From the NCBI GenBank assembly GCA_033439295.1, contig JAVTLE010000001.1, positions 558,001-622,000 of the forward strand: a stretch of 64,000 nucleotides of DNA. The letters run 5' to 3'. Under the pieces are notes generated by a model. That model did not search any database, was not told where the DNA came from, and saw nothing but the letters and a program-made list of their open reading frames with translations. Below, in pieces: positions 1-30,600 of this stretch (positions are counted from its first letter, which is position 1; each line of letters starts with the position of its first letter). The position numbers were made by a program, and so were the translations under genes. The stretch is from Deuterostichococcus epilithicus. Its lineage: Eukaryota; Chlorophyta; Trebouxiophyceae; Prasiolales; Stichococcaceae.

Positions 1-65
1 AGCCGCACATGCCCAGCCCAGCCTGATTTGCATGGTTGCCCAGTCGCGCCTTCTGATCCACGCAG

Positions 66-501
66 GTGCGGGCCATTCAACTGGCTGAGCGGCGCGCAGC
101 CGCACCCCTGGCGACTGACACGGTGCAAGGTGCGCCACGGGCCCGAGTCCTACGGCTGCTGCGTGCGCTTTGACGATGGCGACAGCGGCCGCGGCGGCGG
201 CCACTGCGCTAGGAGCGGCAGCGTTGAGAGCAGTGGTGGCGATGGCGGCAGCGCGGCCTCCAGCAGCACCAGCGGTTCGCCGGCGGCCAGCAGCCCCCAG
301 GCTGCCATTCGTCTTGGCGGCCGGGCCTGTGCCAAAGCGGGTTCCACACCTGCTGATGCCGTCAGCGCGGTGGTGACGCTGGACGGCCAGGATCAGGGTT
401 TGGCGCCCGGCCAGTATGCGGTGTTCTATGACGGCGACGTGTGCCTTGGGTCGGCCGTCATCCAGGAGGCGCTCACGCTGCTGCATGGCCTCCCGCCATG
501 A
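66..501 (+). CDS. MnmA: tRNA 2-thiouridylase (MnmA/TRMU), 3'-terminal exon, partial
   Basis: This is the last exon of a gene that begins before the window. MnmA/TRMU thiolates U34 of Lys, Glu and Gln tRNAs, in algae usually in organelles. The exon follows a cag acceptor at 63-65 and ends at TGA 499-501. It opens with GPFNWLSG, then CKVRHGPESYGCCVRF, and closes with LAPGQYAVFYDGDVCLGSAVI-like sequence read in two pieces (LAPGQYAVFYDGD, VCLGSAVI). These are the C-terminal beta-barrel motifs of MnmA. Between CCVRF and the final motif lies a Gly/Ser/Ala-rich insert of about 75 residues that bacterial enzymes lack. The catalytic cysteines and PP-loop lie upstream and are not visible. The next gene, thiM, converges on it. 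Family recognition is from memory of the motifs, not a search. Confidence 0.8.
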
Positions 502-1089
502 TTCGCCAAGTCGTGCTGTTGCTGCAGATGGTTTCGGCAGCCTCATGAACGTCAGATGATCGCTGCATTGTCTGATGGCCAAGGACCGAAGGATGCTGCA
601 GCAATGACACGACTGCAAGCGTTGAATGTCAGGTCAAAGGCCAAGGTCGCCACTGCAAGTCTCTCATGTCCCTACATCTGAACGTCGTACACAATGATTC
701 ACTGGACATCAAGCATAGGTGTCATCAAATCTCGCAACTCTCAAACGCTCATTCAATAATCAAGCTGAGTGACCTGCACCTGCCCGAAGCTAATGAGCAT
801 CCAGGCACGAGCTGTTTCACGCCTAGTCAGCTGTCCTCTGCCACCTTGAAATTGGCAAGCCTAGTGGCGCCCTGCTTTCGGATCCCTGCTGCCAGCCAGT
901 CGATCATGCCGGACCTGCAGTATTGCCACCCACATGACCATGATGTCGAACCCACAAACCTCGAACATCACCACATCACAAGGGGGCCCTATTCATGCGT
1001 TTTGACAAAAAAAAGCCCTGCCATGCAATGCTGTCTGAAAGGCAACTCTTGCCAGCTGCTGGCAAGCAGAAGATCGAGCAACGCCTTAC
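502..1089. other. convergent 3' intergenic region (mnmA / thiM)
   Basis: About 590 bases between the mnmA stop and the last exon of thiM that I can place. They should hold both 3' UTRs. No tRNA or repeat was seen. The part near 960-1090 may contain the real end of thiM: the minus strand there reads ALLDLLLA, as expected for the thiM C-terminus, but in a shifted frame. Confidence 0.5.
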
Positions 1090-2815
1090 CTCATGGTGGC
1101 AGGCCCGGCATCGCCGCCGCAGCTCTCTGCAGAGGCCCTGCAGCAAGAGTCATTGCCAATCTTTCATGCAAAGACCATGACTCACCCGGACGCTCAAGGG
1201 GCGGGAGGCAAGCGAGGCTAGCAGGCGCCCGTATTTCAGTCGCTCTGGCAGGGTTTTGCTGGATGCGCACCCGTATATCGCCATGGCGTGCGCGACCGCC
1301 AGCAGAGGGTCCGGCGCTTCCGCTGCCAGGAATGCCGCCATGATGGCCGTCAGTGTGCAGCCGGTCGCGGTGATCAGCTGCATCGTGGGGTGGCCATTGG
1401 CCACCCTACAGACGCGGTGCCCGTCAGTGACCTGCAGCACAGATGCGGCAGGCATGTGTTCTGACAGGAACGGTGCACACGACTCACATGGTGCTGCTGC
1501 CGGGGACATGCGTGTGCACACTATCTTGAGCCGGCCTGACGGAACATGGTGGAAGGCTGTCAAAGCGCCACAGCCTTCCTCCTGGTACCTCTGCCCTCCC
1601 CGCGCCCTCCGTGGCAGGTCGCGAGAGTGCCCAGTGCACGACCTCGTCGTGGCTCTGCCTCTGCGTCCGGATGCAAGGCATGCTCCTGAACCGGCTGCTG
1701 AGACAGCCATGGCAAGTGGGCCCCGTACCAGGTCTGTTGCGCCTGAGATGGCCACGATGCAGCCCTGCTGCCGCGCCAGCTGCTTGCTGGCCTCCAGCGC
1801 CGCCTCCGGGCTCACCGTGCTGTCCGTACCGCGGCCGCCGGCGCCAGCGGAGCCGGCCACCGTGAGCACCTCCGACGCGTTGCCGCGTATGAGCGCCGGC
1901 TTGAGGGCCAGCAGCTCCAAGACTGCCTACATCATCGAGGTCTTCGGAACTGTGAAGGTTTCGGGCGGCTACAGGCTTGGATACGGCCATCCATTGCATG
2001 TCCAAGGCTGCATGTCAGGAAATGGGCATCATGTCGCAGACTGTGCGTCAATGCACGCTTCAGCCCAACGTCAGCACCCACTAAGCCGACCATGCGCATG
2101 GTTGGCGACAGCACTCAGCGCCCAGATGTCAAGACTTCCCTCGAATGTCAGTCCCAGCTCAGTGTCTTCCTGTCGAAAACTTGCCCAATGCTAAAACATC
2201 AAGCTTTGCGTCCGAGCATCTACCTGAAGCCGGTATTTCGTGGCGCCGGCAGCCACAGGGTCCAACACCCACGGCTTGCCCAGCTTGCTGTACGTCGCAG
2301 CAGCCGCTTTCATCGCCTCGAAGCTCGGCGGAGTCAGCGTGCCAACATTGATCAGCAGCACCGAAGCATGATTTGCGAATTCCTCCACCTCCTCCGCCGC
2401 AAGCACCTGCCGCGAACATGCATCCGTGATATCGTTTCAATTGAACTTTGCGTCCTTTGAAGGGCATGACATCTATGCGCTGGTGCAATGCTCGGAGCGG
2501 TTACAGCAGTTCTCTGGTGTATACCAATTCCAGGACAGCACACTAGCGCTCACCATGGCGGGGGACGCGCCGACAGCAAGCAGCGTGTTGGCCATGATCT
2601 GCAGACCGAGACACGCTTCAGTCCGAGATTCAAACGTGGGGTGCAGTAGAAATGATGGCTGTATGTTGACCGCAGCGGCAACTGAGAGCACAAACTTCCC
2701 GGCGCGCAGTGTATGGCCAACTCACATCCATGGAGACGTAATTGGTGATGCAGTGTACGAGGGGTTTTAAATCTCGCACACGATTCCATGTCTCGTAGAT
2801 CTGCTCTACGGACAT
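1090..2815 (-). CDS. THIM: hydroxyethylthiazole kinase (ThiM)
   Basis: ThiM phosphorylates 4-methyl-5-hydroxyethylthiazole, the thiazole salvage step of thiamine synthesis. Exons on the minus strand: 2815-2726, 2598-2554, 2406-2224, 1926-1729, 1431-1271 and 1137-1090. All junctions agree in phase. Motifs in order: [27 protein letters not shown], a block reading [45 protein letters not shown], and [13 protein letters not shown] with the active-site Cys. The start ATG at 2815 gives [15 protein letters not shown] with no obvious transit peptide. The C-terminus is unresolved: after AGPATMR the expected ALLD motif is present but out of frame, so a last exon, an assembly slip or a real frame break remains open. 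The gene is head-to-head with the TenA-HAD-ThiD-ThiE gene, which supports a shared thiamine role. Confidence 0.88.
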
Positions 2816-3309
2816 GGCCCTGCAGAAGGAAAGCCATTCGGCACTTCACGTGCCTGCCCGGACCCACCGTTCCGTCGGTGCAAGGCCGGACATGCAGCAG
2901 AAACAGGATCGAATATATGCCAGCAATCAGACTGGTATCACAGGAGCGTGCGATCGTGTGCGCGCCATGCATGCATGCATGCGTCTTGCATATGTACCTG
3001 TTTGGTGGTGCGTTCGAGTAGCGCCGTGCAGAAGCTTGCAGCTGATCGAAGCAATAACGACAGAATTTCCGATGAACGCAACTGCAAATGCTGCGATGTA
3101 TGATCGCTTTGCATTGTGACAAAACACCAATGAGGCACGTGCGTTCTCCGAAACCACAGTCTTCGTGTTCAGGAAGTGTGCAAACGCATTCATAACCCAT
3201 AGTAGACCAGTGGACGACGATCTTTTGGGCCTTGTAATTGCTGCAACGACATATAGATAGCGCCTTCTGTGATGTTCACGCAGCAACACCCGCATCCCTC
3301 GTGCCGACG
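2816..3309. promoter_or_regulatory. bidirectional promoter region between the two thiamine genes
   Basis: These 494 bases separate the thiM start ATG (minus) from the best start ATG of the fused thiamine gene (plus), so they must hold both 5' ends. A CATG tandem (2966-2983) lies near the middle. I looked by eye for the conserved TPP-riboswitch core (CUGAGA with its partner helix) and found no convincing copy. An in-frame ATG at 3238 could extend the plus-strand protein by 24 residues. Confidence 0.5.
2966..2983. repeat. CATG tetranucleotide tandem
   Basis: Four-plus tandem CATG units inside the divergent thiM/TH promoter region. The tract is self-complementary. Confidence 0.7.
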
Positions 3310-5160
3310 ATGACGGAAGCGGGCACGCCGACTGGGACTGGAGTGTCCCGAAGGCTCTGGGAGGACGCAGCAGACGAAGTTCAAGCGTCACTGCATCACC
3401 CGTTTGTGCGTGCGCTTGGAGCGGGGACCCTGCCAAAGTAAGCCACCCTCACGGTTTGGTAATTGCCTCGTTTTCCAGCCCGATCGGTGGCCTTAATTGG
3501 TGCTGGCCATTTTCATCGAGGCTGCATTCCCTGGACCCGGATGCCCGCCACTCGCCAGAACTGCCCTTGCTGAGTGCGCACCGCTCGCATGCAATCACGG
3601 CTACATGCTACATGCTGCATGCTATATCCGACATCCTGCATGCGTGCAGGGCGGCCTTTCAGGCGTACATCGCGCAGGATAGCCACTTCCTGACCGCCTT
3701 TGCCCAGGCGTACACAGCCGTGCTGCCGAAGGCCGCCTCCGCATCGCCGGTGCGTGTCGCGTGGTGGCAGCCGGGCAATGCAGCAGCGGCGCGGCTCACA
3801 GAGCAGCGTGCTTCGTGAACCCTGCTTGCGTGGCACGGGACCTCCTGCGACCTTTGCATGGTATTGCATGTGCTCAACCTGCACCGCAGACAAGGGACTT
3901 GTGCGAAGCCATGTTTCATACTCACCCTCTGACTGCTGGTTGCTGCCGTGCAGGCCGTGTTTGCGACGATCCGGGAGCTGCTGGACGGCGTGCACGAGGA
4001 GCTAAGCCTGCACGTCTTCTACGCCCAGGTACGCCTCCTTCCGGAGACCCCCTTCCGGAGACCCTCTTCCGAACACCCCTTCACAAAGCCGCTGGCTGAG
4101 GAGGCCGGGTGCCTCCCTGCCAGAAGGGACCGGTCGTGCGAGTCGAGCCCGCTGCCTGCTTCTGCTTTGCAGCCGCATCGAAGCAAGCGCTCCTATGAGG
4201 ATGCTGCTCCAGCTCACCCCTGGCCGTCGCAGGCGTGGGGAGTCGTGTACCAGAGCCCGTTTCCCATTGATGCGATGTGCAATCCGTACAGGAGTGGGGC
4301 GTGGAACTGGACCAGCTGAACTCGCGGCCCAACGCGACGACCGCCGCCTACACCAAATTCCTGCTGCGCCTTGCGGAGGGGCCCCAGGCATGTTTTCTCT
4401 CCCCTATTCGTTTCCTCACGAACTGAACCCGCCATCGACTTGGCGTCTGCGATCCTGTTGGTTGTCAAATACGTTCTAAATTCGCATTCAAGGCTTGGCG
4501 TGCACACCCACAGCTGCTGCGCGGCATGCCGCACTTGCTCGAGTATGTGCCTGACCTGCCGGCTGGTCGGTGCCCCCCATGCTGCTGCCATGTCCTCCTC
4601 TCGCCCGCGGGGCAGCGCTCAGGCAGGAGCTCGTTTGTGACGAATGCAGAGCCTGGTCCACGTGCTGGCGGCCATGGCGCCGTGCACGCGCCTGTACGGC
4701 TACATCGGTTGCCAGCTGGCGCGCTCGGGACGCGGCGGCGGGTCCGGCGGCGGCGGCCGCCGCCGCGGCGCGCACCCCTACTCCCACTGGATCCGCACCT
4801 ACAGCGCGCCCGCGTACCTGCGGCTGCCCGCCGCGAAGGAACGCATCATCGACCAGCTGGGCGCTGACGTGCCGTACGGTGAGTGGTCGAACCGCCGACT
4901 CACCCTGGCGTTAGCAGAGGATTGACACGAATGGGTTCGCCTTGCCCTGAAACGCTTGTCGGCATTTGAATGCTGCGAAATCTGGCCGTCTTAGCGGCTT
5001 GCATATTGCGCAGTAAACATCTCCAGCTTCTCGATCGTGTGCGGCCGCCTCTCAGACCCGCCCTTGCTGCCGCACGATGCCACAGGCTCGCTGCGCAGTC
5101 TGTATTGCACCGCGATGCGCTTTGAGGCGGCCTTCTTCGGGGAGCAGCCGCAGACGCCGC
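3310..5160 (+). other. TenA domain of the fused thiamine gene
   Basis: Exons 1-6. Motifs: [100 protein letters not shown], and the closing [19 protein letters not shown]. In this family TenA releases the pyrimidine alcohol from degraded thiamine. The glycine-rich stretch [14 protein letters not shown] before HPYSHW is an unusual loop insert. Confidence 0.88.
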
Positions 5161-8100
5161 CGCTGCCACGCGTTGCGCTGCTGGCGGTGGACTTCGACGA
5201 GACGTGCACCACGGGCGACACCACCGGCGCCATCATCGGCGCGGCAATCGATGCCGCCGTGCGACGCAGTGGAGGTGAATGTCACATTACTAGCGAGGGA
5301 TGCATGGCAGTGCGGGAGTCTGGGTCGCTGCCAGATGCACAGGCTCTGAAACTGCCAGTGGCGTTGGGCGCACAGCAGCTGGTGGATGCGTGCAATTGAC
5401 TGGTCGAAGGCCAGACAGTCGCACCACTGTTCTGTTCTCGCATGGCCTCAAAACTTCTGAGTCCATCTGGATTTGCCAAGCTGAGTGTCATGCCACGATG
5501 CAATCTTTGTCCTCAGCTGGCGGGAGGCGCAGTCCAGGTTGCAAAGTCCTTGGCCCCAATGGCCGCAGGCAATGAGGGCGTGCGGCAGCAGCTGGAGGCC
5601 AAGCGGGACTCTCTGGTCGCCAACTACGGGCAGCAGCGGGATGTGCTGCTGGCGGACCTGCTGCCAGAGGTGCGGCTTTCCAAAGAGATATCTCCGCAGG
5701 TGTATGGGCATGTGGGTACAGAGGCGGCATTGGGCAGTTCTGATGCTATCCAGCATGCAGGGAGCAGCGGGGCCGCTGCTGGCGGGACTGCTGCCAGAGG
5801 TTCGGTGTCAACAATCATTTACAGTTTGAAAGCAGCCTCAGGCTGGCTTGGTGCCATCCAGCATCCGCTGCCGTCGGATCTTTGCTCGAGATGTTCTTTT
5901 CATGCTCCGCTCGGGTACAGCAACCTCTGGATGTGCTCACCCCCAGCGAGTGGCTTGTGAGCGGGTGGCTTTGGGCGTTGATCATGAAGATACCTCTGCA
6001 TCTTGCATGAACTCTGGCATTGGCGTATTGCGGATCCTGGCTGCAAGTCAGACTGCCTTTGTTTGCATGATACATGTCGGCACCCTGCAGGGGCCTGTGT
6101 TGCTCGCCGCACCAGCACCATGTTCTGACCAGGTTTTCATACGAAAACCCTACAGCTTTCAAGGGCTGCCAAACCCGGAGGCCCACTGCGACAAGAGGCT
6201 GGGGGGCTTTATGGAGACACCTCGTCACACCAGATTAGGGGGTCGCCTACTGCTACCAGTTGCAGGCGCTACCGGGTCCGAAGGGTTTCAAGGGCGAGTG
6301 GCCGGCAACTCTTTTCATACTGAGGGCTTCTGTTCACAGTAAAAGCCCACAGACTGTCATTTGCTTGTAGGGGCTGCCGGCCCCTGAAGACTACAACGAC
6401 GAATGGCTGGCTGGCTTCGTGGAGCGGCTGTCGGCCTTCGACCGCGACATGAATGCGGTGGTGCAGGACAGCCGCATCCTGGCGGGCGTCTCGCCGGCGG
6501 ACCTGGTCGCTGCCGGTGAGTGGTGCTCTATCTTCAGATGCTCAATCCTCGGGTGTAACGCAAGACAGCCGCGGTGCAAGACAGCCACATCTACGCGGCG
6601 TCGTGCCGGCGAATTGCCTGCCTGCCAGTGGGTGGTCTTGACAATCGCTTTATCAGCTGGGGTACGGGCAGCCAGCCCAGCAGGCAGGAGGCAGGGAAAT
6701 CAGAGCAGCGATCGTGCTGCGGTGAGAACCAGCTGCAGATGCCAGGAGGGCGCCTCGTGGCTTCCTCGGGAGGTCGTCCAGCATCGTTGCAGGAGGCAGA
6801 AGCAGGTAAATGAGCGGCAAAACTGGACTCATATCATCCTCGTCTGTCAGCATCCACATCCCGCGCTACCTGCAGGCGTAGCTGTGGAGTTGCGGCGAGG
6901 GTGCCGGGAGGTGTTGCAGCGTGCGGCGCAGGAGCGCGTGCCGACGCATGTGGTGTCTGTCAACTGGTCGTCGGCGCTGGTTCGAGCAGCGCTGCTGCCA
7001 CCCTCCGAGGCCGCAGCGGCAGCGCAGCCCTCTGACACAGCCCAGCAGCAGCAGCAGCAGCAGCAGGCGACAGGGGCGGCGGCGGGAGCCGACGGCGGAG
7101 CCTGCGGTCAGGGCGGCGGCGCGGCACAATGCGCCCACGGCGCAGCAAGCGGGGTCTCTGCGGCGGCAGCCCAGCAGTCGTTCGACAGCGACGATGAGGC
7201 CTCGTCCGTAGCCGCCGCGGCAGCGGCCTCCGTGGCGGCCGCCAGGGTGCAGGCGCCGGGCGGCGGGGGCGGCGCCAGAATCGCGCCGGTCGACGACGAA
7301 GCTGTCGCCCTGGAGTCGGCCGCCGCCTTCCAGGCGAAGCAGCTGGCCTCGGGCGGCAGCGCGGGTGGCGCAGAGGCGCTGGAGGGTGCGACAGCCAGCA
7401 TCGGCAGCGGCCTGCAGGTGCTTTGCTGGCTCGATCTCTAAGTCACCTGAGCAGCGATATTCGTACACAATGACAGACCCTGGAACGCTGGCATTGCTGC
7501 GAACCTGCCAGCTCAACACGTACAAGTGCCGAAAGACAGTCCATGTCTCCCGCTCTAACAGACGGCATGTCGCTTTGCAAACGTTTTAGGTATCGCAGTG
7601 CATTGTCGTGTGGTTTCGGGAAGGACACCCGGACACCATCCACGTCGGTTGCTTGCGCAGATCACAATACACGCCAACGACCTGGAGATCGGCCCTGGTG
7701 GCCATGCCACTGGCGACATTGTGCGGTACGGCATTGAGCCCTACCTTATTAAATCCTGTTGGAAGACCTCAACTTCCTCAAACAAGCATGGCAAGGCTGC
7801 CCTGCCGCGGGGCCTTTGCCTCGACTTGCGTGGTGCGTTCTTCGATTCGGGGTCGCCACATGGCGAAGAGAGGCACCAATTAGAGCTCCACGCTGTCCCA
7901 TGGCTGTCCTGTGTGAAAAACTCTTCAAGCAAATCGTCCCTCATGATGCTTCACTGGCAGCGCAGGCGCGTGGAGTGCGGCACGGACAAGCACGCCATTT
8001 TTGAGACAGTGCTGCTGGACCTCGCCTCCGAGGTGTGAACATGCTTCATCACGGCAAAGCCTGACAACCAGCAACGAACAGCTGCCGGCACTGCTGAATG

Positions 8101-11100
8101 AGCATTTGGTTCATGCACCTCATCTACTCTGCCCGCCGTGCGACCTGGCGCTGCTGCGCATCCAGCATCTGACATCAGATGCTCACCAAAGCAAAGGGAA
8201 CCTGCTGCCTTCCTCCTGCTGCCCCGTTTGCGGCGGCACACGGACTGATGGAGGGCCTCTCGGTGTGAGTTGGCGACATGCCGTTGGGAGGACACCACAA
8301 GACGTCGCTACGACCAACAGGCATGCACTTGCTGCCGCAGACGGGGTCGATGGAGGGCTTGTCGGTGTACATCGGCGACTCTCCCTCAGACCTGGCGCCG
8401 CTGGTCGCTGCTGATCTTGGCATCGTGGTGGGGTCCAATGGCCTGCTGCGGCGGGTGGCCGCTGCCGCCGGGCTTCAGATTCAGCCCCTCGTGTCAGGTG
8501 GGTGTTCACTGGGTCGGAGCTCGGCGCTTCTGCCTCCCCCAAGGGCACTGACCGCGTCGCTGCTGCCGGCCGGTGATCAACGGACTGCAACCAGCAGACG
8601 AAAGCGGTCCACAGTCCAGCCAAGTTATTCTCATATACTTGTGGAATTCTCGCTGCGGGATCTGTGATGGCGTCTGCACCACCACGCAGTCAAGCTCATG
8701 AGCAATTGGCCGCACCGCACGGCACGCATCACAGTGTCTCTGCCGCAATGGCCGCAATGACCGCACTTCACTGGTCCGCAGCCGGACAGTGAGATGGCGA
8801 CAAGCCACCACTGCCGCATTCGAATGACATCAGCCAATCAACTTTACCGGCAAACTGCAAGGGAAAAGCTTCCGACTGCATCCTCGCCACACCGCTGGCA
8901 CCAGGCTGCTGGATGTCACCCGTGCTGAATGTCGCTGGCTGTGCATGCCTGCAGCGCCCTTTGGCACCGAGCGCGTTGATGGTGTGCTGTACGAAGCGGC
9001 CAGCTGGCCGGAGATTGGGGCCTTCCTGTTTGGCGCCCCTCCCAGCAGCAGCACCCTGGCGCCGCCCGCAAATGTCATCAAGGTGAGGTCACCGCGGTGC
9101 ACTTAGCCCTGTGGCACCTCGACAGCACTGCAGCCGGACAGGGGCACATTGTGGCAAAGACCACATTTGCAGCATGCCTGGTCTTTCCAGCAGGCAGGAG
9201 CTCCAGCGCCGATTGCTACGATAGGGTGGAGCTTCAACGTTGCTCCTGCACCATGCAGACCAACCAAGGCAGACGTAATAGATCCAGACCAACCAAGGCA
9301 GACGTAGTAGATCCATATGAAACGTATCATGCTCCTTTGGTGCAAGGTGCCGCTTGTGCTGTCGGTGTCGGGACCCAGATTATGCAGCCGCGCCGGCATC
9401 CAGGCGGACATCATGCCACAGTCTGTGGCCCCCTGACGATTCCATGCCCTCCGCACCAGGTACCGCGGGTGCTGAGCGTTGCGGGGTCAGACTCTGGCGG
9501 CGGCGCCGGCATCCAGGCGGACATCAAGGCCTGCGCCGCGCTGGGCGTCTTCGCCGCCACCGCCGTCACGGCGCTCACGGCACAGAACACGCATGGAGTG
9601 GCCGGCGTGCACACAGTGCCGGTGGCGAGCGTGCGGGCGCAGCTGGACGCAGTGCTGAACGACATCGGCGCGGACGTGGTCAAGACCGGCATGCTGCCCA
9701 GCGCTGAGGTGCGGCACCCACCCTGCAGCAGGGATCCTGCAGGGTGCAGGGTGCAGGGTTCTGCGGCATGGGGGAGCGCACCCACCGGCAATGTACGACA
9801 TTGGAAACGCTTCAGGCAGCTGAGGACGCAGACTTGTGAGCCGGTTGCACAGCTGCCTCAGGCAGGGCTGCTGCGGATGCCGGCGACCACATCTGGCCGG
9901 GCGCCTGCCAGTGGACTCGGCCATGATATTGCCACAGCTTGCGCTCCAGCCCATGCACAAATGGGTCCTGCAGACACCGGAGGCGACATCGAACGTCTCC
10001 CTTGGCCGGCTGCTGAGACGCAGATGGCCAAACCAAGCTCGGTCAGCAAATTTTCGTGTCACCACGCATCTGTAGCATAGTGCAGGCGATGGAATGCGGC
10101 TGGAGGCAGTGGCAGATGCGCCATCCGGGCGGCCGCTGCTGGTGCTGCGGAAGCTGTGTCATTTGATCCAAATGGGCCTCACCTTCATGCCGTCAGAGTG
10201 CTTGCCAGGGTCATGAAGGGAGGCATGGCGGAAGCCGCCTACGGCTGAGCGCTGCAGAGCTGGAGCCACTCATGACCCGCAGATTCTAGAGGCGGTGGCA
10301 AAGCGCTTCGAGGCAATGGCGGATGCGGCGTCCAAGCGGCAGCTGCTGTCGCTCTGCTCTCTGTGCAGCTCGACAGCGATCTGCGACCGCCCTCGTGCCG
10401 CCACGCTCCTGCAGATAGTGGAGGCGGTGGCGGAGCGGCTGGAAGCAACCGCGGCCACCTCCGGCCGCCCGCTGCTGGTGGTGGACCCGGTGCTGGTCGC
10501 CACCAGTGGAGACGCGCTGGCGGCTGGCGGCGTCATGGAGGCCATGCGAGCGCGGCTGCTACCGGGCGCCACCATCGTGACGCCCAACATCCCAGAGGCC
10601 TCCGCGCTGCTCGGTGCGGCAGCCTCCGGTAGAGACGTTCTGTTGATGGTTCGTGGCACGCTTGCAAGGGACGTCTGCGGTGCATGCTTGCTGCGGGAGC
10701 TGGCTGGTGGAGGCTCCCCCTCCAGCAGCCGGGGCATTTGCGGCAACCTCAGAAGGAGATGAGTAGGCGGCTGCTGCTGCGTGCGCGCCTGCATGTGTTG
10801 TTCTATGGAACTCTCTTGGAAGTGGGAGGCTTTGAAGTGGGACCGACAGTGACAATGCAGCAGCGGCTGCGGGAGCTCATGCTGGCAGTACGCGTTTGCG
10901 CCAGTTTGTATGCCTCGATCTTCGCTGCTGCATTGGAGGACCCCCGGCAACTGCCGAGTCGTGCAGCTGGGCAGAGGGCATACTGGGCGACAGTCTGCAC
11001 CAGCGCATGACGATGTGTTCAGTTGTTGCCTCCTCCCAACTACTTTGTAGAAGCCCTCATACCTAAAACCTGCGCAGATGGCAAGGCGATCGGCAACCTG

Positions 11101-14100
11101 GAGGACATGAAGAAGGCGGCTGTCGCGCTGCATGCTTTTGGCCCCCAGTTCGTACTGATCAAGGTGCGGCAGCTGTGGCTCAATCCTGGACTTCAGGCGG
11201 GTGACATCCACACGCAGCCACTGGCTTGGCGTGACCGCCAGCTTGCAAGCGCCCCGCAAGCCTCGCAGGATGTGGTCGGCATCAGTCACGAACCCTGGCA
11301 CCCACACGCCTTATGGGTTCCGTCTGCAGCCACTAGCGGCAGCAGGATCGACACATTAAATCATACACGTATATCATACACGTTTGGCAAGGCCGCTGAC
11401 TGATGCGCTGGCGGTGGCTCCCGCTGCAGGGTGGACACCTGGTGTCGGCGGACAGCGGCCGCGACGGCGGCTGTGCCACCGCCGCCGACGTGCTTTACGA
11501 CGGCACCACCATGACGGTCCTGGAGGAGGATGCCATCATGTGAGCATGCCTGCGACGTGCTGAGCTGATGTTCAGCTGAAGTCGTTAAGCGGTATCCATG
11601 TGAAGGCGCAATGTTGTGATCAAATTGACGTGCTTCAACAATGTTGCTGAGTTCCTGTCGAAACCTCTCTTCGCCACAGTCATTGCAAGGAAATCTTTCC
11701 GGAAGGTTTTGGCGCCTCAACAAGGTCAGTCAAACAACCTTCCCTTTGGTGTGCTCAGGACGGGCAACAGCCACGGCACAGGGTGCACCCTGGCCAGCGC
11801 CATCGCCGCGGGGCTGGCCAAGGGCCTGTCGACGCCCGACGCCGTGCGGCAGGTGCCTGTCACCGGCAGCCTGCAGTCTGTGTGCTCGCGTGCTGCGCCT
11901 GGCAGTCCCGTCTAACCGCCCTCCGTCATGGCCGAGCGTCCAGAGGCTGGACGGCTGGCAGGCCAGTGTTCATGATTCTGCCAACACACTCAGGGCGCAC
12001 AATTGGAGCACCGAAGGTTGGGCAGGAGGGAAAGAACTTCGGATACGAATCCAGACCAAGCGACTGCTTCATGCGCGCAGGCCAAGACGTACCTGACGGG
12101 AGCGCTGCGGGCGTCGGCGCCGCTGCGCATCGGCGGCGGNGNNNNNNNGCCCCTCAACCACGGGTGCGCCCGCCACCCAACCCCCCGCCCTGCCACCCGC
12201 CCGCCGGCGCGCCCTGCTGGCGACGCAGCGACACGCAGCCGGCAGAGGTGCAGAATCTGGCCCGGGCGTCTCGCGCGCCCTCCGGTGGCGGGAGGGCAGC
12301 CGACCGGCAGCCGGTTCCGGTCGGCAGGCAGCCGGTCTTGGTCGGAGGGCAGCCGCCGCGCTTTGGCGGGTCCCACGGCGCCCTCACGCGCTCCAGAGTG
12401 CTCCCCAAGCATTTTTGGTGCATCCCCCAACTCAGGTACCAGACCGCGGACTGGGCGGCGCAGGGCAGCCGGCCCACCCCGGAGCGCCGCCGCGACGCCG
12501 ACTACCTGCGCCTCTACGCTGTCACCGACGCTGCCTGCGACGCCCGCCAGGCGCGCGGATACCTGTGACGATACGGCCACGATTGCGTGCCGCCTGTCAG
12601 CCCCTGTTATGGTCACGGTGTTGCAGTCGCAACTTGCGATGCGGTGGCATGGTCGCCGCCTGCGACGCGGCAAATGGTCGCCGCCTGCGGTGCCCGCCAG
12701 GCACACTCGAAGTGTTGTGCAGTGCTTTTGCGGGCAGGCTGAGCGCCGCTGCAGGTGGGAGTCGGCGCTGGCTGGCGGTCACCAGCAGGCGACCATCATG
12801 GTCGTTCATGGTCTAGACTCCCCGTCCTCGAGTCCGACAGGAGCAGGCAGCTGCACGCCCCAGCAGCAGCGACAGCTGAGCACCAAACCACCGAATCACC
12901 CGAATGGCCAGCATCACCAGCGGGCATGTTGCTGTGTGCAGGGACGCAGCACGCCGGAGTCTGTGCGGGATGCGCTCGCGGGTGGCGCCGGCTGCGTGCA
13001 GCTGCGGCTCAAGGGCGCTGACGGCGGCGCCTTCCTGCGCCAGGTGGGAGTTTTAGCGTCCCGTAGCTGCAGTGCCGCATCAAGTGCAGACGCAGGCAGC
13101 TGCGGCTCAAGGGCGCCGTGCGGCAACCTTCCTTTCTGTTTGAAAACAATGTGTACATACATATATCATAATACAGGCGCCCAGTGCGCCTAGCCTGATG
13201 CTTTTGCTGCTATCCAGCACTTGCCCAGGTGTGATGAGGGCTGTCAGCAATGGCGCCCCACCTTGTTGCCACGGACACAGAGCGCGTGCTGCACAACCAG
13301 CAGGGCGCAGCAGCCGGCGCTACCTCCGCTGCCGAACATCGTGACGAGTTCGAGTTCTCATACTCGTCACGATGCACGTTGGCGCAGGTGGCGCCGACAC
13401 TACCAGCAACGTGTGCTGGATTGCGAAATCACATGCTGGCGCCACCACTTACTAGCAATCGCCGTGGCTGACCTTGGCGAGTCTCCTGCGCCAAGTTTGC
13501 TGACGCTGTGTCTTGAAAACGCGAAATCGCAGGCGCGCCAGCTGGTGGAGGCATGCCGGGCGGCGGGCGCGGTGTCGATCGTCAACGACCGCGTGGACGT
13601 CGCCCTCGCTGCAGACGCAGACGGCGTGCATGTGGGGCAGGTGAGCAGCTCAAGATCAGAATTGTATATGCACCCTTGTTTATTCTGTGTGTGTCCATTA
13701 GCATGTCATACAGCAAGGTCTGGTTGCTGTGCGATTGCGCGCATTGGCCAGGCGGGTGTAGGGCTTGGGTAGTTGCGCGGGCGTTGGTGGACACCGAACA
13801 CCGCGCGTGCATGAGCAGCCAGGACGCCCCCCTTCGGGCCGCCCTTGTGCCTGCATGCCATGCTGGGTGCTGATGAACGGCAGGTTGCACTTGCGGCATT
13901 CAGACTGCGCCACCGGCGCCGCCCATGCTTGGCCATTCAGTCGCGTCGAGCGGCCGCAGGTTCCAGTGGTAAGGCTGTAGTCATGGAGGCGCCCGCAACA
14001 GTCATCAATCACGCGTGTGGGAACGTGCGGACAGCATCCCGCCTATCCTGCTTGCACACAGAACGACCAAGCCAAGCGCAGGCTCTGATCGCACTGATAT

Positions 14101-15459
14101 GTGCCCTGGGTGGTACAGACAGTCCCGAAAAACAGTGGTCACATGCGGCGATGTCTCCACAGGATGACCTGCCGGCGGCGGAGGCACGGGCGCTGATCGG
14201 GCCGCACCGCATCCTGGGCGTCTCCGTCAAGACGCCCGAGCAGGCGGTCGCCGCCGCAGCCGCGGGAGCCGACTACCTGGGCGCCGGCGCGGGTGCGGAA
14301 TTGAAATAGAACAGATTCCAAATTCCCCGCCGCCCCAAATCCAGCCGCTGCTTGCATCCGTCCCCACTTAAAAGACCTCTTGAGGTAAGACCTCTTGAGA
14401 TCGCCGCACGACGCGGCGGCCGGTTCTGGGCCCTGCCCTGCTGGGTACAGGCCCGAGGTGGTCATACCATCACGCTGATAAGGGCAGGATGCTCGATTTT
14501 CCTGCTGACATCGGGGTGCGAGTGAGCCAGGGGGGCCGCCAGCGCCCATTCCATCCTCTGTATCTGCACCTGACACCCCGAGCGTGCACGGGTGCGCCAC
14601 CTGAAGTGCACCAGGCGAGCATTAAGCAGACAGACGCAATCACCATGAACACGACACTGTCAATGTCAATGTCACTGCCAGAACCTGAAAGAGCAGACTG
14701 GGCCGCAGGGCCGCAGGCGCTGACATGCAGCCACTGAAACTGTCATCAAAATGCAATGCAAAGATCGCCTCATAGTCTCGGGCATTCAACACCCGCAGTG
14801 TACCCCACCAGCACCAAGCAGACGGACGCAATTAGCCTAGACACGCTCGCCGCCATCTGCGCCGCGGTGGCGATCCCCGTCGTCGCCATCGGCGGCGTGG
14901 GCGCTGGCAACGCTGGGCCGGCGATCGACGCGGGCTGCGCGGGCGTGGCGGTGGTGTCCGCGCTGTTCGACCAAGCCGACATCAAGGCGGCGGCCGCCGA
15001 CATCCTGTTGGTGCGCACTTGTAAAGCTGTACTGCTCCCCTGAGGGAGGGTCAGCCTCCTGAGAGGCAGCTCGGCGCCTGGACCAGCAGGGCACCATCGC
15101 ATCGTCGTTCAGGGGGTGCAGGTGCAGCCCGGGTGCTTGGCAAGCGCACACTGAAGGTGGTGCGCTGAAATGGTGCCGTCTCCTCTGCATGACGTGTTCA
15201 GACCCCCTGCTTGATCAGTGGGTGTGGCGTCAGGGTTCATGGCTGCCCGTCCTGGCTGCTGCAGGCCGTGGCGGACGGTCTGGAGCGGCGACGCGCGGAG
15301 AACGAGGCAACGCTGCTGCGCAGCTGCGGCAGCGGCGAGCCGCGCTCGCCGCTGTCGCAGTCGTTTGCCGCCTTTGCGATGCCGGAGCATGGCGGCAGCG
15401 GCGGCGCCGGCGCCGCCGATTGGCAGGAGCAGGACGAAGAGCTGCAGGCGACAGGATAG
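3310..15459 (+). CDS. TH2-TH1: four-domain thiamine protein: TenA - HAD phosphatase - ThiD - ThiE
   Basis: Twenty-five exons: 3310-3437, 3650-3749, 3954-4028, 4292-4387, 4650-4878, 5014-5274, 5533-5669, 6371-6515, 6876-7417, 7661-7725, 7966-8032, 8341-8497, 8955-9082, 9460-9708, 10415-10613, 11078-11163, 11430-11539, 11759-11852, 12081-12163, 12436-12550, 12942-13043, 13533-13640, 14163-14292, 14799-15010, 15265-15459. Lengths sum to 3,813 nt, open, about 1,270 residues (N gap taken at face value). The first part matches plant TH2 (TenA plus HAD thiamine-phosphate phosphatase), the second plant TH1 (ThiD HMP-P kinase plus ThiE TMP synthase). Two introns use GC donors (4388, 12551). After the HAD part the splice to ThiD keeps frame; if the intron were retained, a stop would follow at about 9102, so two separate genes are the alternative. 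Start ATG 3310 is the first inside the conserved region; 3238 is possible. An acidic 65-residue tail follows ThiE. Confidence 0.85.
4038..4080 (+). repeat. short tandem repeat in intron
   Basis: About three imperfect copies of a 14-base unit related to cttccggagacccc, in the intron after exon 3 of the fused thiamine gene. Confidence 0.6.
5764..5805 (+). repeat. decayed copy of the end of exon 7 (thiamine gene)
   Basis: The sequence reads LLAGLLPEV and closely matches the true exon end at 5633-5675 (LLADLLPE plus donor). It lies about 130 bases downstream, inside the following intron, same orientation, donor region included (gttcgg for gtgcgg). Confidence 0.75.
6160..6310 (+). repeat. two decayed copies of the start of exon 8 (thiamine gene)
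   Basis: True exon 8 starts at 6371 with [19 protein letters not shown]. Copy one (6160-6221) reads [19 protein letters not shown]. Copy two (6261-6310) reads [14 protein letters not shown]. Both are upstream in the intron, same orientation; copy two keeps a cag-like acceptor. Confidence 0.72.
7043..7066 (+). repeat. CAG run coding for Gln inside the HAD insert
   Basis: Eight CAG codons in exon 9 of the fused thiamine gene, at the start of the low-complexity insert between the [11 protein letters not shown] and ITIHANDLE motifs. Confidence 0.9.
8226..8285 (+). repeat. decayed copy of the start of exon 12 (thiamine gene)
   Basis: The stretch matches the exon-12 start at 8335-8390 ([13 protein letters not shown]) at most positions: tgatggagggcctctcggtg here against cgatggagggcttgtcggtg in the exon. 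It lies in the intron just upstream and contains an in-frame stop where YIGD is encoded. Confidence 0.7.
9257..9314 (+). repeat. 29-base perfect-phase direct repeat, two copies
   Basis: Two adjacent 29-base units starting agaccaaccaaggcagacgt differ at one visible base (taatag versus tagtag). They lie in the intron between the HAD and ThiD parts. Confidence 0.85.
9341..9414 (+). repeat. decayed copy of the first ThiD exon
   Basis: The intron stretch reads VLSVSGP...AGIQADI and ends in gccggcatccaggcggacat, identical to the true exon at 9509-9528. The middle has diverged. It lies about 115 bases upstream of the real acceptor, same orientation. Confidence 0.8.
10082..10362 (+). repeat. two decayed copies of the ThiD VVDPVLV exon start
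   Basis: The real exon starts at 10415 ([20 protein letters not shown]). Copy one (10082-10150) keeps tggaggcagtggcagatgcg and ggccgctgctggtgctg. Copy two (10278-10362) keeps a gcag acceptor and reads [20 protein letters not shown]. Neither keeps the ATP/substrate motif VVDPV. Confidence 0.78.
12140..12148. other. assembly gap (Ns)
   Basis: One n, a g, then seven n in the ThiD-ThiE linker after [11 protein letters not shown]. The frame of the total model still closes if the gap length is right. Confidence 0.95.
13092..13140 (+). repeat. decayed copy of ThiE exon 21
   Basis: The block gcagctgcggctcaagggcg is shared exactly with the exon at 12997-13016, followed by a degraded cct-tcct-g tail. 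It lies downstream of the exon, so echoes occur on either side. Confidence 0.72.
14602..14665 (+). repeat. decayed copy of ThiE exon 24 start
   Basis: The copy reads [10 protein letters not shown] where the real exon at 14799 reads [10 protein letters not shown]. The upstream caccagcgagcattaag-type sequence also aligns with caccagcaccaag. It lies about 200 bases upstream in the intron. Confidence 0.75.
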
Positions 15460-16135
15460 CTGGCTATGGAGGTTCCTTCAAGCTGGGGTGATGTCCTCAA
15501 TACTGGGGGCGCTGCCAGCCAGAGGGTGCTGCTGAGCAGATTGGGCAGAGACTTGAGCTGTTGGACGCCCAAACACAGAGCGCCAGGGCAGGAAGCCATG
15601 CCAGCCACCCCTGGGATGGTGCATGCCGTGCAGCATCCAGGTGAGCCGGCCTGGTGCATGGAGGATGCGACTTCATTCTGGGAAGGAAAGGACGTGGGTG
15701 CCACTCTTATCCTGTGTCTGCTACATGCTGCCGCTTGCCCGACACTGATGTATTGCATGAAGGTGAGAGGCGAACCTGTGCGTGTGCACTTGTTGCATCG
15801 TTCTGCCAGTTGACTGCCTTCTATCGATTCCAAACGGGCGAGGCACTCAACATCGAGTGGTTGTTGTGAATTTCAGTGCCTTTCCATTTTCTGGCGTTGA
15901 AGATGGCTGCCACATGAAGCGCATCGCACCTGGTTGGTCTTGCAGACGAGCACATGACCTGTCCACGACAGAGTGTCGCGATGAACGACTGCACTGCGAC
16001 TCCGATGAGTCAGCTAAAGAATTTGCCGAAAGCCTTAGGCAGCAGAGGTTTGCCTTCCAGCCATCCCTGAGGCCAGGGTCATGCAGAGCATGAGAATTCT
16101 CGAGCATCGACCTCCACCAGCTGCGGGCGGTGCGG
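15460..16135. other. 3' region after the fused thiamine gene
   Basis: About 680 bases with no exon I can support on either strand and no repeat seen. Confidence 0.4.
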
Positions 16136-17644
16136 TCAAATGCTGACTAGGAAGTCAGGTAGGGGCCGCCACAGCCACCACGCCACTGCGCACATAAGTT
16201 TCGCAGCGGCTGAGACGCTCAACCCACGGCATAGGGACAGTTGAGCGGCTGGGGCCATGCAGAACGCCAGCGATCGTTTGTAGTGCACGCTTGCTGCAGC
16301 TTCCAGCCAGCGGCTCAACGGTGCGATACAGGATGTCAGGCTGCACTCAACAAGCGCCCTCACAGTCTCTCCATTTGCGCCTGGCCCGACAAGTGTGACA
16401 GGGCGCATGGTCAGCTCTATGCCGTAGTCAGCCGACGCCTGCTCGACGGGCTTGATGTGACTGATGATGCCTGCTGCATTTGCAGTGTGCCCGACGAATT
16501 CGGCCTTGGCCAGGACCAGCCGCGTCGCCATCAAAGCCCAGCTCTGTCGCCGCTGCCCGCATGCCAGCCATGTAGTCTCCCAGAAAGCCACGCTGCGGTG
16601 CAGCGTGTGCTTGCTGGCCCAGGCTCGGGATCTTCTGCCGCGTGCTGGACTATCCGCTGCGGCTGCACGTCCGTCTCCACGCCGCTTGCCGTCCAGAGGA
16701 TCAGCATAGCCGTCTGGGTGTCTGCATCCCCGGACACGTCCTCGACTGACGGCCGCAGGTGCGGCAAGGCCGGGGCACACTCGCGGTCACGACTCTGCTG
16801 CCACCGGTCGCTAAGCCTGCGTCGTCCCGCAGGCGTTTCCGAAATGGGGAGAAGTGAGCAGCAGCAGCTCGAGAATTCAGAGTGCTGTGTAGCTTGTCAC
16901 AATATAAGTCTGGGTCGAGTGTTCGGCTTTCGCGGCTATGATGCTCAAAGGGTTCACCCGGAGTGCTCAGCCTGGATCGAGCTAGCCCAGGCTGCACAGG
17001 CTGCGTGATCCGTCCCTGAGGCGAGCCGGCAGCTGGCCGTGGATGCTGTACCGTCTGCCCGTGTAATTGAGCAGATTGCGAGCACTGCCTGAAATTGCAA
17101 GAGGATTTGGCGAATTGCAGACAGCGTCGGCCACCTGGCAGCAAAGTCACGTGTGAGAGATTGAGAGATGCCTTCGTCTCGGCAGATGCACACATTGCCG
17201 CTCGAACTGTGCACGCCGCCCACAAATCAGCATTGAACCGCCGGCCAATTCGCCGTACACGCCGTCGAGATTGGAGACGAGGCTAAGTCGAGGGGCACTG
17301 GTCCTCTGGCCTTGGTGCGTTTCATAGCCTGTCCGTGCCAGTCTGCGTAGCGTGCTTGAGGCTCTGATTGCTGCGAAACAATTGTCTGGCATGTCTGATG
17401 ACCATCATGCTGGTCTAGCGCCAATACTGTGCCAATAGTCCCACGAACATCTGTCCCTGCATAGCATATACAAGCATCTGAATCTATCCTGACATAAGCA
17501 ATTTTCGCGTAGGACATCCCTTCCATAGGTCCGTGCTGCAGCCATCACGCGAGCGCCAGCACGCCTGAGACTGAGGCTCTTGTTGCGGTGCCGCTGCCGC
17601 CGCAGGCAGCTTAGTTGCAATTGAAGGTTGGCGTGCCCTGCCAT
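16136..17644 (-). CDS. unrecognised minus-strand gene candidate
   Basis: I do not recognise this gene and its exons are not resolved. An ATG at 17644 opens MAGHANLQLQLSCLRRQRHR then NKSLSLRRAGARVMAAA, a basic, Ser/Arg-rich start like a chloroplast transit peptide. Further down, minus-strand frames with protein-like composition include LSLVSNLDGVYGELAGGSM (about 17.28 kb), VEDVSGDADTQTAMLILWTA (about 16.73 kb) and FVGHTANAAGIISHIKPVEQ (about 16.45 kb). No family motif is evident. It would be divergent from the carrier gene and convergent with the fused thiamine gene. These could also be chance open frames in GC-rich DNA. Confidence 0.3.
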
Positions 17645-27671: not shown

Positions 27672-30600
27672 ATGCAACGAGTGTGCCGCCGTTCGACGCG
27701 ACTTGTCAGCGCCGGCAGTGGCACAGCTGCCCGCCTCAAGTACTGTATTGGTGGTCCTGCAACCGCTGCTGACTCGCCACATCATCTCACCCGCACCTAC
27801 GGCATGGCGCAGCTCCTGACGAGCATGTCGGTGCCGGCTGCGACGGTGCGTCCTGCCAGTTGCCGGCCAGCAACCGGCAAAGGGAGTGGCACTCAGGGTG
27901 CAGCACCGTGGCTGTCGCTTCTGCGGACCACAGGTCACCTGCAGCCTGCAGCCAGCCTGTGGCGACCAGGCAGCGGAGCCACCCGGATGCCATTTGCCAC
28001 GGCAGCTACAGCGGCAGCCAAAACCACCGGAGACAGGTCGCTGGCAGCGCCGCCAGACGCAGCGACGATGCTGCAGGGCGGCTTGGTCGTCGTGGAGTCG
28101 CCGGCAAAGGCGCGTAAGATCCAGCAGTACCTCGGCGACAAATTTACGGTGAGCGCCTTGCTATTCATGAAGCCGCTGTGGAAGCGCACCCTGGTGCAAG
28201 CACTGTGCTCATAGCTGTGAGTCGGGGAAATAATCGTAGCGCTAGGTCGCTGACGGGTTGCAGCTGTGCCATCCTAATCCCATCTGCTGCTGCATTCCGA
28301 ATGCTTGTGATCCTCTGCACGTGGCGTGAAGTGACATTGGCGTACTCTGCTGCCATGGTTGTCAAGTCACTCCTGCACCAGCAGCGGGTCGTCGGTGCAT
28401 CAGGTGGCCTAGCGGCCGTGCAGAGCATGCCCCCCCCACTTCGGTGCAACCCTGTGCACAGGGTCACGCCGCCGGATGCAAAGAGCATTTGAATACGACA
28501 CCCTTCAATTCCCTACAGGTGCTGGCGTCGTACGGCCATGTGCGCGACCTGCTCAACAAGGCTGGCTCCGTCAAGCCGGAGGCGGGCTTCGAGCTGGTGT
28601 GGAGCACCGACGCTTTTGCCTCCAAGCGCGGCCTGGCGGAAATCACGGCGGCGGCGGCGGCGGGGCGGCCGAAACGCCTGGTGCTTGCGACGGACCCCGA
28701 CCGCGAGGGCGAGGCTATCTCCTGGCACGTACTGCAGGAGCTGGAGGTGAACTCCCCTGCACACTGCAACGGCACGAATACTACAAAGGGAAAGTCCTTG
28801 GACATGCAGCTGCATGCTGGGGTGCTGGACCGTGAAGGCGGTTCCGTCACCTGGCAATGCTGCAGGGCATCCCCTGGGCTGTCCACCTTCACTATCTCAG
28901 ATTGGATACTGTATCGGGCTTGCAGCCGCATCCTACCACTTGCATCGCTCTCGCAGGCTTGCTGCACCTCTTTCCCCTTGTCGTACTGCTGCCGAGGGCC
29001 TCGCAGGACCTCGCATGCTTTGGCAGAGAGCGGATAACCCAGTGTCAGCCCTCAGGCTGAGGAGCGGCCGGCATAGCTGACAAACGGTACCTGCACCAAT
29101 GTTTTTCCCGTACGGCTACCCTCACACCGAGTTCCAGGCTTCCGGCTTAGCGCTTCGGGCATTGAGCAGCCTCCGCACTGACCCTCGTCCGCCCTGGCGC
29201 TTCCGCCGGCGTACAGCCTCCGCACTGACCATACTGCTGAGGCTGCCCCGCAGGCGGCGGGGCTGCTCCGGGGTGTGGACGTTCAGCGCATCACCTTCGT
29301 GGAGGTCACGAAAGCCGCTGTCCTGGCGGCGCTGGCAGCGCCGCGGCCGCTGGCGGCGCCGCTGATAGACGCCTACCTCGCGCGCCGCGCCCTGGACTAC
29401 CTGTTGGGGTTCAACCTCACGCCCGTGCTGTGGCGCAAGCTGCCCGCCGCAAAGTCTGCCGGTGCGTCGCTATGCGTAAGCTCGTCTCTGCCTGTCTGCT
29501 GAGAGACCCACCTCACACCCGTGCTGTGGCAGGCACACAGGTGCATCTTGTTTGCCTGCAATTGATGTGAACGACCTGACTGCATGTCTAGGGGTCCACC
29601 TTGCGCCTGTGCTGCGGCGCAAGCAGCCGATTCTGCATGCGTCTTCAGACATGCATTCCACATTTGATGGTGGTGCTCCAACCTCGTCGCATGCCGTGGT
29701 TCGTGTCCATCGTGTCGGGCGCTTGGCAGATTTTCGAGCGCGCTGGCCTGCACTGGTGTCACTGAAGCATTGAAGCACTGAAGCACTGGTGTCACTGAAG
29801 CATTGAAGCACTGAAGCACTGGAGCACTGAAGCACTGAAGCACTGGTGTCACTGAAGCATTGAAGCACTGAAGCACTGGTGTCACTGAAGCAACAGGGTG
29901 CTGTTTCCAAGGGACTGCCGAAGGAATGACCCTTCCGACTTACCTGCGGTGCCAGGGCGGGTGCAGTCGGTGGCGCTGCGGCTGGTGGCGGAGCGGGAGA
30001 GCGAGATCCAGGTGTTCACGCCGCAGCACTACTGGACCGTGGGGGTTGCGCTGCAGACGGCCTCTGGCGCAACTCTGCAGGTGGGGCTGCCGCTGCAGCC
30101 AGCGCAATTCCACAAGCAAATTCCCTGCATTCTGGTCTGTAACGCACATCCAGCCACGGCAGGCGTGAAGCCCCCTGATCCAAGGCACTGACCTGCAGGC
30201 CGCTGGAGGAACAGCGACATAATGTCCGTTGCATCTGATGGACCATTGCATTGCACTTCTGCAGGCGGCGCTGACGCGGCTGGACGACCAGAAGGTCACC
30301 CGGCAGGGCTTTCCCACGGAGGCGGCGGCGACTGCTGCAGCCGAGCGCATCGCCGCCGCACAGCTGCGCGTCGCCTCCCTGTCGGCCAAGGTCCGGTGAC
30401 GCCCATGGCCTGCGCAGTTTGCACCGGTCGCATTGCAAGTCATGTCAACGCCTCGACTGGCAGGCGGGAGGTACACCAGCATGGCGCAGGGACGAGTGCG
30501 GACTCCTTCATGCCCGGCATTGCTGGCTGCAGCTCACCTCACAGTGGGAAGGGGTTCGGCTGCAGCATTGTGAAACGAGGTGCAAATGCGCTCATGTACG

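What the first reader, a model, noticed from the sequence alone, without database searches (positions are those of the whole stretch)
1090..15459. Head-to-head thiamine cluster with a single TenA-HAD-ThiD-ThiE protein next to ThiM
The sequence shows a minus-strand ThiM and, 494 bases away, a plus-strand 25-exon frame whose exon phases close over 1,270 codons. The frame carries the domains of plant TH2 (TenA + HAD phosphatase) and plant TH1 (ThiD + ThiE) in one polypeptide. By family knowledge these five activities cover salvage of both thiamine halves, coupling to TMP and dephosphorylation to thiamine; only pyrophosphorylation is missing. I do not know of a described four-domain TH2-TH1 fusion. 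Substrate channelling and shared expression with thiM are inferences.
Basis: partly seen in the sequence, partly recalled or inferred. Interest (0 to 1): 0.88.

Follow-up and report, generated by a model that had tools for sequence, protein, structure and literature searches.

The report
Four-in-one vitamin B1 enzyme gene
A green alga carries one gene for a single protein that appears to join four vitamin B1 enzymes which land plants split over two separate proteins, and database relatives show the same arrangement in many green algae although the papers I could search do not describe it.

Summary
On the plus strand, 25 exons (3310-15459) join into one open frame of 1275 codons in the order TenA, HAD phosphatase, ThiD, ThiE. 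A minus-strand ThiM starts 494 bases away; I extend it by one exon, to 827. The HAD|ThiD joint is the weak point: intron 13 has a good donor but the poorest acceptor of 24. Two better-scoring acceptors upstream are also in frame, so the fusion does not depend on it, and the stretch needed for a separate TH1 start scores like intron. The main support is comparative: 27 of 97 database proteins retrieved have the same four domains in the same order, 16 labelled as green algae, and a transcript-derived protein crosses the joint. The fused protein matches nowhere else in the 46.8-Mb genome. Plant-type TH2 and TH1 are thus one polypeptide here, widespread in green algae, named 'hypothetical protein' or 'thiamine phosphate synthase' in databases, and not described in the papers I could search. 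The consequence worth testing is compartmentation: plants make TMP in plastids and dephosphorylate it elsewhere, while a fusion must do both in one place. Channelling and co-expression with ThiM are untested.

The parts
3310..15459 (+). TH2-TH1 fusion gene, 25 exons: 3310-3437, 3650-3749, 3954-4028, 4292-4387, 4650-4878, 5014-5274, 5533-5669, 6371-6515, 6876-7417, 7661-7725, 7966-8032, 8341-8497, 8955-9082, 9460-9708, 10415-10628, 11078-11163, 11430-11539, 11759-11852, 12081-12163, 12436-12550, 12942-13043, 13533-13640, 14163-14292, 14799-15010, 15265-15459; 1275 aa
   Evidence: spliced translation without internal stop; homologs over the length
3310..5171 (+). TenA domain, aa 1-262; active-site-type Asp53, Cys145, Glu247 (equivalence to B. 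subtilis D44, C135, E205 is recalled)
   Evidence: Pfam PF03070; aligned to TenA structures; residue positions
5172..9076 (+). HAD phosphatase domain, aa 263-708; DFDET (Asp269, Asp271), Lys601, GDSPSD from 627; low-complexity insert of about 135 aa in exon 9
   Evidence: own profile, motifs, HAD-IB matches below cut-off
9083..9459 (+). intron 13, the HAD|ThiD joint; better-scoring in-frame acceptors end at 9258 and 9387
   Evidence: splice-site scores
9384..9413 (+).
9460..12152 (+). ThiD domain (HMP/HMP-P kinase), aa 711-985; [14 protein letters not shown] with Cys939
   Evidence: Pfam PF08543; TIGR00097 above cut-off; motifs
12476..15267 (+). ThiE domain (TMP synthase), aa 1003-1212; QLRLK, NDR, PTSTK with Lys1147
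   Evidence: Pfam PF02581; TIGR00693 above cut-off; motifs
827..2815 (-). ThiM (hydroxyethylthiazole kinase), 7 exons: 2815-2726, 2598-2554, 2406-2224, 1926-1729, 1431-1271, 1137-1090, 914-827; 270 aa
   Evidence: spliced translation, Pfam PF02110 252 bits
2816..3309 (.). 494-base gap between the two start codons; no TPP riboswitch found
   Evidence: Rfam scans

Best explanation
The gene encodes one four-domain enzyme, plant-type TH2 (TenA + HAD) joined to plant-type TH1 (ThiD + ThiE). Shown from sequence: one open spliced frame, the domain order, and retained catalytic motifs. Inferred: TenA hydrolyses pyrimidine breakdown products to HMP, ThiD phosphorylates HMP and HMP-P to HMP-PP, ThiE couples HMP-PP to the thiazole phosphate to give TMP, and the HAD domain dephosphorylates TMP to thiamine, which a separate TPK activates. 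ThiM next door phosphorylates salvaged thiazole. The fusion fixes TMP synthase and TMP phosphatase in one compartment, most likely the cytosol, because most four-domain models leave no room for a transit peptide.
Against: The acceptor at 9459 is the worst of 24, and 57% of other AGs in these introns score as well; the two better ones are not remarkable either (12% of AGs reach 5 or more) and lie directly after the in-frame ATGs 9253 and 9382. So a separate TH1 start is possible on paper. No RNA data for this species. My exons were chosen partly by homology, the splice and codon scores were trained on this same model, and my domain profiles were built from the same protein set. Family profiles, unlike the fused protein, do match elsewhere in the genome: PF08543 on C10 (48 bits; a pyridoxal-kinase-like frame), PF02581 on C10 (37 bits, over cut-off; TenI/ThiE-like, far under NCBIfam cut-offs) and weakly on C3, so a divergent ThiE/TenI-like gene is not excluded. 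The TH2-half protein search returned only 4 hits. ThiE's TxTK is seen in 22 of 28; the 6 misses have only partial ThiE matches. P0012 and P0044 have long N-terminal extensions, against a purely cytosolic reading. The model's pTM is 0.61 and the HAD|ThiD linker (526-530) is below pLDDT 50, so nothing supports a fixed channel. No activity is known to me for any of these fusions.
Confidence: 0.88

Rival explanations
1. Two tandem genes: a TH2 gene ending by read-through of exon 13 (TAG at 9104-9106, read; the reader said near 9102), and a TH1 gene starting at the in-frame ATG 9382 or 9253.
For: ThiD frame open upstream with ATGs at 9253 and 9382; weakest acceptor of 24 at 9459; land-plant TH2 relatives retrieved here are separate proteins (P0094, P0095).
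Against: Donor of intron 13 ranks fifth of 24, and the would-be TH1 start at 9382-9459 codes like an intron. Relatives continue from HAD through a linker of variable length into ThiD in one chain. The room between stop and start would be 275 bases (9382) or 146 (9253).
Confidence: 0.07
2. One transcript, but alternative splicing or start sites yield both the fusion and a separate TH1 or TH2 product.
For: Several in-frame acceptors and in-frame ATGs inside intron 13. A second Tetraselmis-labelled model (P0092) carries TenA-HAD plus only the first part of ThiD.
Against: Nothing in the window requires it, and P0092 may be an incomplete or duplicate gene model.
Confidence: 0.15
3. The fusion is an assembly or annotation artefact.
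For: Eight undetermined bases at 12140-12148; many relatives are themselves gene predictions.
Against: Same order in proteins from many independently named records and sources and in one transcript-derived protein.
Confidence: 0.02

Closest known systems
Plant TH2/PALE1 (TenA-HAD, TMP phosphatase)
   Same: Same two domains in the same order; 31-32% identity of the TH2 half to Amborella and Adiantum proteins; TenA Cys and Glu kept in both
   Different: In plants a separate protein, reported cytosolic by one group and mitochondrial by another (PMC7868968 main text; PMC8331165 passages)
Plant TH1 (ThiD-ThiE)
   Same: Same two activities in one protein
   Different: In plants a separate, plastid protein (PMC8331165 passages); here joined behind TenA-HAD. 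No plant TH1 sequence was retrieved here for comparison
Bacterial ThiE-ThiD-TenA proteins (NCBIfam NF007070/PRK09517; 7 proteins, P0081 and P0083-P0088)
   Same: Three of the four domains in one polypeptide
   Different: Other order, no HAD phosphatase; the window's TH1 half scores 306 against a cut-off of 761
Cafeteria roenbergensis protein FNF29_01032 (P0069) and the environmental relative P0068
   Same: The same four domains in one protein
   Different: TenA at the C-terminal end (HAD-ThiD-ThiE-TenA), in a bicosoecid stramenopile
Yeast THI20 (ThiD-TenA) and THI6 (ThiE-ThiM)
   Same: Fused thiamine enzymes in a eukaryote; THI20 (3rm5) and a 'thiamine biosynthetic bifunctional enzyme' (3nl2, 3nm1) matched
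   Different: Two-domain proteins, no HAD (architectures recalled)

Membership tests
TH2 (TenA-HAD TMP phosphatase) | TenA followed by HAD in one chain | tested here: met
TH2 (TenA-HAD TMP phosphatase) | HAD catalytic motifs (DxDxT, Lys, GDSxxD) | tested here: met
   window's protein; DFDxT in 28 of 28 and GDSxxD in 26 of 28 four-domain proteins
TH2 (TenA-HAD TMP phosphatase) | TMP phosphatase activity | not testable with these tools
   needs an assay or complementation of a th2/pale1 mutant
TH2 (TenA-HAD TMP phosphatase) | a protein of its own, without ThiD-ThiE | tested here: not met
   fused to ThiD-ThiE
TH1 (ThiD-ThiE) | HMP-P kinase and TMP synthase domains above curated cut-offs | tested here: met
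   TIGR00097 284 bits (cut-off 205), TIGR00693 195 bits (cut-off 145)
TH1 (ThiD-ThiE) | plastid targeting, as in plants | tested here: inconclusive
   TenA starts at aa 16, so no room for a transit peptide in this model; an in-frame stop at 3235 leaves only an unseen upstream exon
TenA_C subfamily | active-site cysteine | tested here: met
   Cys145 aligns with the PC of solved TenA chains 1tyh, 1to9, 1yaf; 28 of 28 four-domain proteins; that this Cys is the catalytic one is recalled
NF007070 ThiE-ThiD-TenA | domain order and curated cut-off | tested here: not met
   TH1 half and relatives P0012 and P0004 all under cut-off; order differs
ThiM | Pfam HK match above cut-off | tested here: met
   252 bits (cut-off 27)

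The most novel reading that the evidence does not exclude
The four-domain enzyme is ancestral, and land plants split it: separate plant TH1 and TH2 would descend from a single TH2-TH1 gene by fission, after which TMP synthesis moved to the plastid while TMP dephosphorylation stayed outside. That would explain why plants now have to move TMP between compartments, and would make algae with the fusion the original, one-compartment state.
Probability: 0.25. Interest if true: 0.72.

Novelty: new variant of a known kind. Interest (0 to 1): 0.52.

Why it matters
In plants TMP is made in the plastid by TH1, while TMP phosphatase TH2 has been placed in the cytosol by one group and in mitochondria by another (PMC7868968 main text, PMC8331165 passages). 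A conserved algal protein carrying both activities cannot be in two places for the two steps, so localising it, for example in Chlamydomonas or Coccomyxa, directly tests where a green cell makes and dephosphorylates TMP. It also ties the HAD domain to the thiamine pathway by physical fusion to ThiD-ThiE. And it offers a four-step enzyme chain as a ready-made part for vitamin B1 work, if channelling or mere matched expression can be shown.

Tried and rejected
Rejected: that Chlorella-type algae lost TenA. Their TenA-less models mostly begin inside TenA's last helix and look truncated; that helix lies inside the TenA-matching range of the predicted model. P0040, P0042, P0043, P0052 and P0066 lack the motif; P0042 (a pedinophyte, whose chain runs on well before HAD) may be a true TenA-less form. 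Rejected: the TenA_E label, since the cysteine is present. Rejected: TGTAA poly(A) signals as evidence; on the plus strand of 1-17000 they occur only at 3233, 6554 and 15020 and mark neither gene's 3' end. Not informative: PF03070 against the own genome found nothing, not even this locus, because exons split the domain; the fused protein replaced it. The viral-contig scan gave two loci: the one I looked at, L014, carries a bacterial-looking ThiD alone; L015 was not examined. The TH2-half search returned 4 proteins, all already known. The AU test does not reject all fused rows forming one clade apart from plants (p 0.072), so fission is not shown. In the structure comparison no HAD structure is among the 50 rows, which ThiD, ThiE and TenA fill; the HAD part was not folded alone, and a sequence search of it against solved structures found nothing at E 0.001. 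A Foldseek search proper did not run. Conserved adjacency with ThiM in other algae could not be tested: metagenome scans were capped at 0 and the genome collection is prokaryotic.
Full report
WHAT IS THERE. I rebuilt both genes from the raw sequence. On the plus strand 25 exons from 3310 to 15459 join into one open frame of 1275 codons. The two start codons are 494 bases apart. Pfam gives TenA, ThiD and ThiE far above cut-off. The HAD part has no Pfam match of its own in this protein; it is recognised by homology over aa 268-708, by DFDET, Lys601 and GDSPSD and by HAD-IB matches below cut-off (21.6 bits here, 37.6 bits in the Coccomyxa relative). The HAD part of plant TH2 (P0094, P0095) scores 98-120 bits per piece against a profile built here.

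IS IT ONE PROTEIN. The critical point is intron 13 (9083-9459). For the fusion: its donor ranks fifth of 24, and the 78 nt before exon 14 (9382-9459) have a codon score of -0.50, the median of 3825 open intron pieces and lower than all CDS pieces. Against: its acceptor at 9459 is the worst of 24, and the ThiD frame is open upstream with ATGs at 9253 and 9382. But of the seven in-frame AGs listed up to 9459, those at 9258 (6.3 bits) and 9387 (4.8 bits) score better and are open, so the fusion does not hang on the weak site; only the linker length does (0, 24 or 67 aa). Their scores are not strong evidence by themselves: 12% of AGs inside these introns reach 5 or more. The alternative start at 9382 lies at a 30-nt near-copy of ThiD's own GAGIQADI coding stretch. 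The scores were trained on this same gene model.

COMPARISON. Three protein searches, each scoring only the roughly 8000 candidates sharing most words, gave 97 proteins. With the window's they make 98, sorted by best domain match: TenA-HAD-ThiD-ThiE 28, HAD-ThiD-ThiE 39, TenA-HAD-ThiD 4, HAD-ThiD 2, HAD-ThiD-ThiE-TenA 2, TenA-HAD 3, ThiE-ThiD 9, ThiE-ThiD-TenA 7, ThiD-ThiE 3, ThiD 1. The profiles came from the window's domains iterated on this set; precomputed Pfam labels and fresh scans of P0012 and P0069 agree for TenA, ThiD and ThiE. Of the 27 other four-domain proteins, 15 carry species names: Myrmecia, Coccomyxa, Apatococcus, Elliptochloris, Raphidocelis, Gonium, Bryopsis, Volvox carteri, Volvox reticuliferus, Pleodorina, two Chlamydomonas, Edaphochlamys, Sanguina and Haematococcus, all green algae to my knowledge; one (P0012) has the label Tetstr1, which I read as Tetraselmis; 11 are unnamed environmental. 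P0044, from the MMETSP transcript set, carries TenA, HAD and ThiD in one chain.

TENA-LESS MODELS. 41 proteins have HAD-ThiD (with or without ThiE) and no TenA match. In 36 of them the last TenA helix, with its conserved Glu, still precedes the HAD domain, and 20 models begin at or within 3 aa of the start of that motif. Four-domain P0010 is 86% and 85% identical to P0029 and P0030 from its residue 219 on. The simplest reading is that most are 5'-truncated predictions; this is inference, because I could not see their DNA.

GENOME. All 25 matches of the fused protein (queried without the exon-9 insert) in the 46.8-Mb, 21-contig assembly fall on C1:561310-573456, the window's locus. Family profiles see a little more: PF08543 hits one frame on C10 that is best explained as pyridoxal kinase, and PF02581 hits a frame on C10 (over cut-off) and one on C3 (under) that look like distant TenI/ThiE-type pieces, far under NCBIfam cut-offs. 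So this is the only clear TH1 and TH2, with a divergent ThiE/TenI-like gene not excluded. THIC (C12), THI4 (C6) and TPK (C3) have matches, so the pathway looks complete.

EVOLUTION. In a tree of ThiD+ThiE (79 of the 98 proteins, those with strong matches to both) the window's protein sits with P0001 and P0002 (100/99). Several subclades match familiar green-algal groups, but the deep green branches are open and long branches abound. In a TenA+HAD tree (33 rows; P0070, P0072, P0092, P0093 and P0096 left out), drawn with a midpoint root on the Cafeteria branch, unfused plant TH2 groups with the green algae (81/84), inside a larger set of fused environmental proteins. That would fit fission in plants, but holding all 29 fused rows apart from plants is not rejected (AU p 0.072), the root is not inferred, and the environmental hosts are unknown. 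Cafeteria and P0068 have TenA at the other end.

MECHANISM. Inferred from family knowledge: TenA (with the cysteine, so TenA_C type) to HMP; ThiD to HMP-PP; ThiE to TMP; HAD to thiamine. ThiM supplies the salvaged thiazole phosphate, THIC and THI4 the de novo halves. In 23 of 28 four-domain models TenA begins within 22 aa of the start, leaving no room for a transit peptide; in the window's gene an in-frame stop at 3235 closes the frame upstream. I therefore expect a cytosolic enzyme, unlike plastid TH1 of plants. P0012 and P0044 have long N-terminal extensions, which speaks against a universal rule.

LITERATURE. Ten full-text searches of the held open-licence library did not list a paper that I could see describing this four-domain fusion. 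I saw the main text of PMC7868968, passages of PMC4260697, PMC5635689, PMC8331165 and PMC10470507, and section 6 plus passages of PMC4921024; the rest only as listings. PMC4921024 lists 'TenA-HAD' as an unpublished thiamine hydrolase fusion in prokaryote-focused work; its supplementary fusion tables were not open to me. Three ids tried, meant as the HAD phosphatase, TH2 and TenA_E papers, were not held. So 'undescribed' means only: not found in these searches. PMC4260697 notes that the SSSF transporter gene is collocated with TH1 and THIM in Ostreococcus and Micromonas CCMP1545, so the ThiM neighbourhood has a precedent.

VERDICT. A real, conserved enzyme fusion whose biochemical steps are all known. 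The surprise lies in the architecture, its spread, and what it implies for where TMP is made.

Noticed in passing
G000:C4:1586015-1586124 (minus); L032:5016-5125: The only TPP riboswitch detected in this genome (62.5 bits; 49 of 1500 first-look candidates were scored) lies 5' of a minus-strand gene with an AT-hook-like KRGRPR stretch and a bZIP region (bZIP_1 24.6-25.4 bits, just under the 27.6 cut-off). The 9.9-kb stretches around THIC (L037) and THI4 (L038) show none at E up to 1. PMC4260697 (passages) reports no riboswitch found in trebouxiophytes. A vitamin-sensing RNA on a transcription-factor gene would be unusual; that the two belong to one transcript is inference.
   Followed up: partly
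window 9384-9413 and 9497-9526: A 30-nt stretch of the ThiD coding sequence is nearly copied inside the intron just before it (93%).
   Followed up: partly
window 9253-9310: Two head-to-tail 29-nt copies (93%) in intron 13.
   Followed up: no
window 7005-7417 (exon 9): Poly-Gln/Ala/Gly insert of about 135 aa inside the HAD domain, which splits the HAD match of most relatives; may contain an unrecognised intron.
   Followed up: no
P0069 (Cafeteria roenbergensis) and P0068: Same four domains but with TenA at the C-terminal end, in a bicosoecid stramenopile.
   Followed up: partly
G000:C10:1664544-1664810 and G000:C3:463899-464111: Distant TenI/ThiE-like frames outside this locus; could be a diverged tautomerase-like gene.
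   Followed up: partly
window 47558-47632: tRNA-Val (AAC) gene.
   Followed up: no
window 28330-29034, 41035-41862, 58372-59172: Exon-like frames with Toprim, amine-oxidase/NAD-binding and PLP-dependent enzyme (PALP) matches; no thiamine family among the 20 of 34 long frames scanned beyond the cluster.
   Followed up: no
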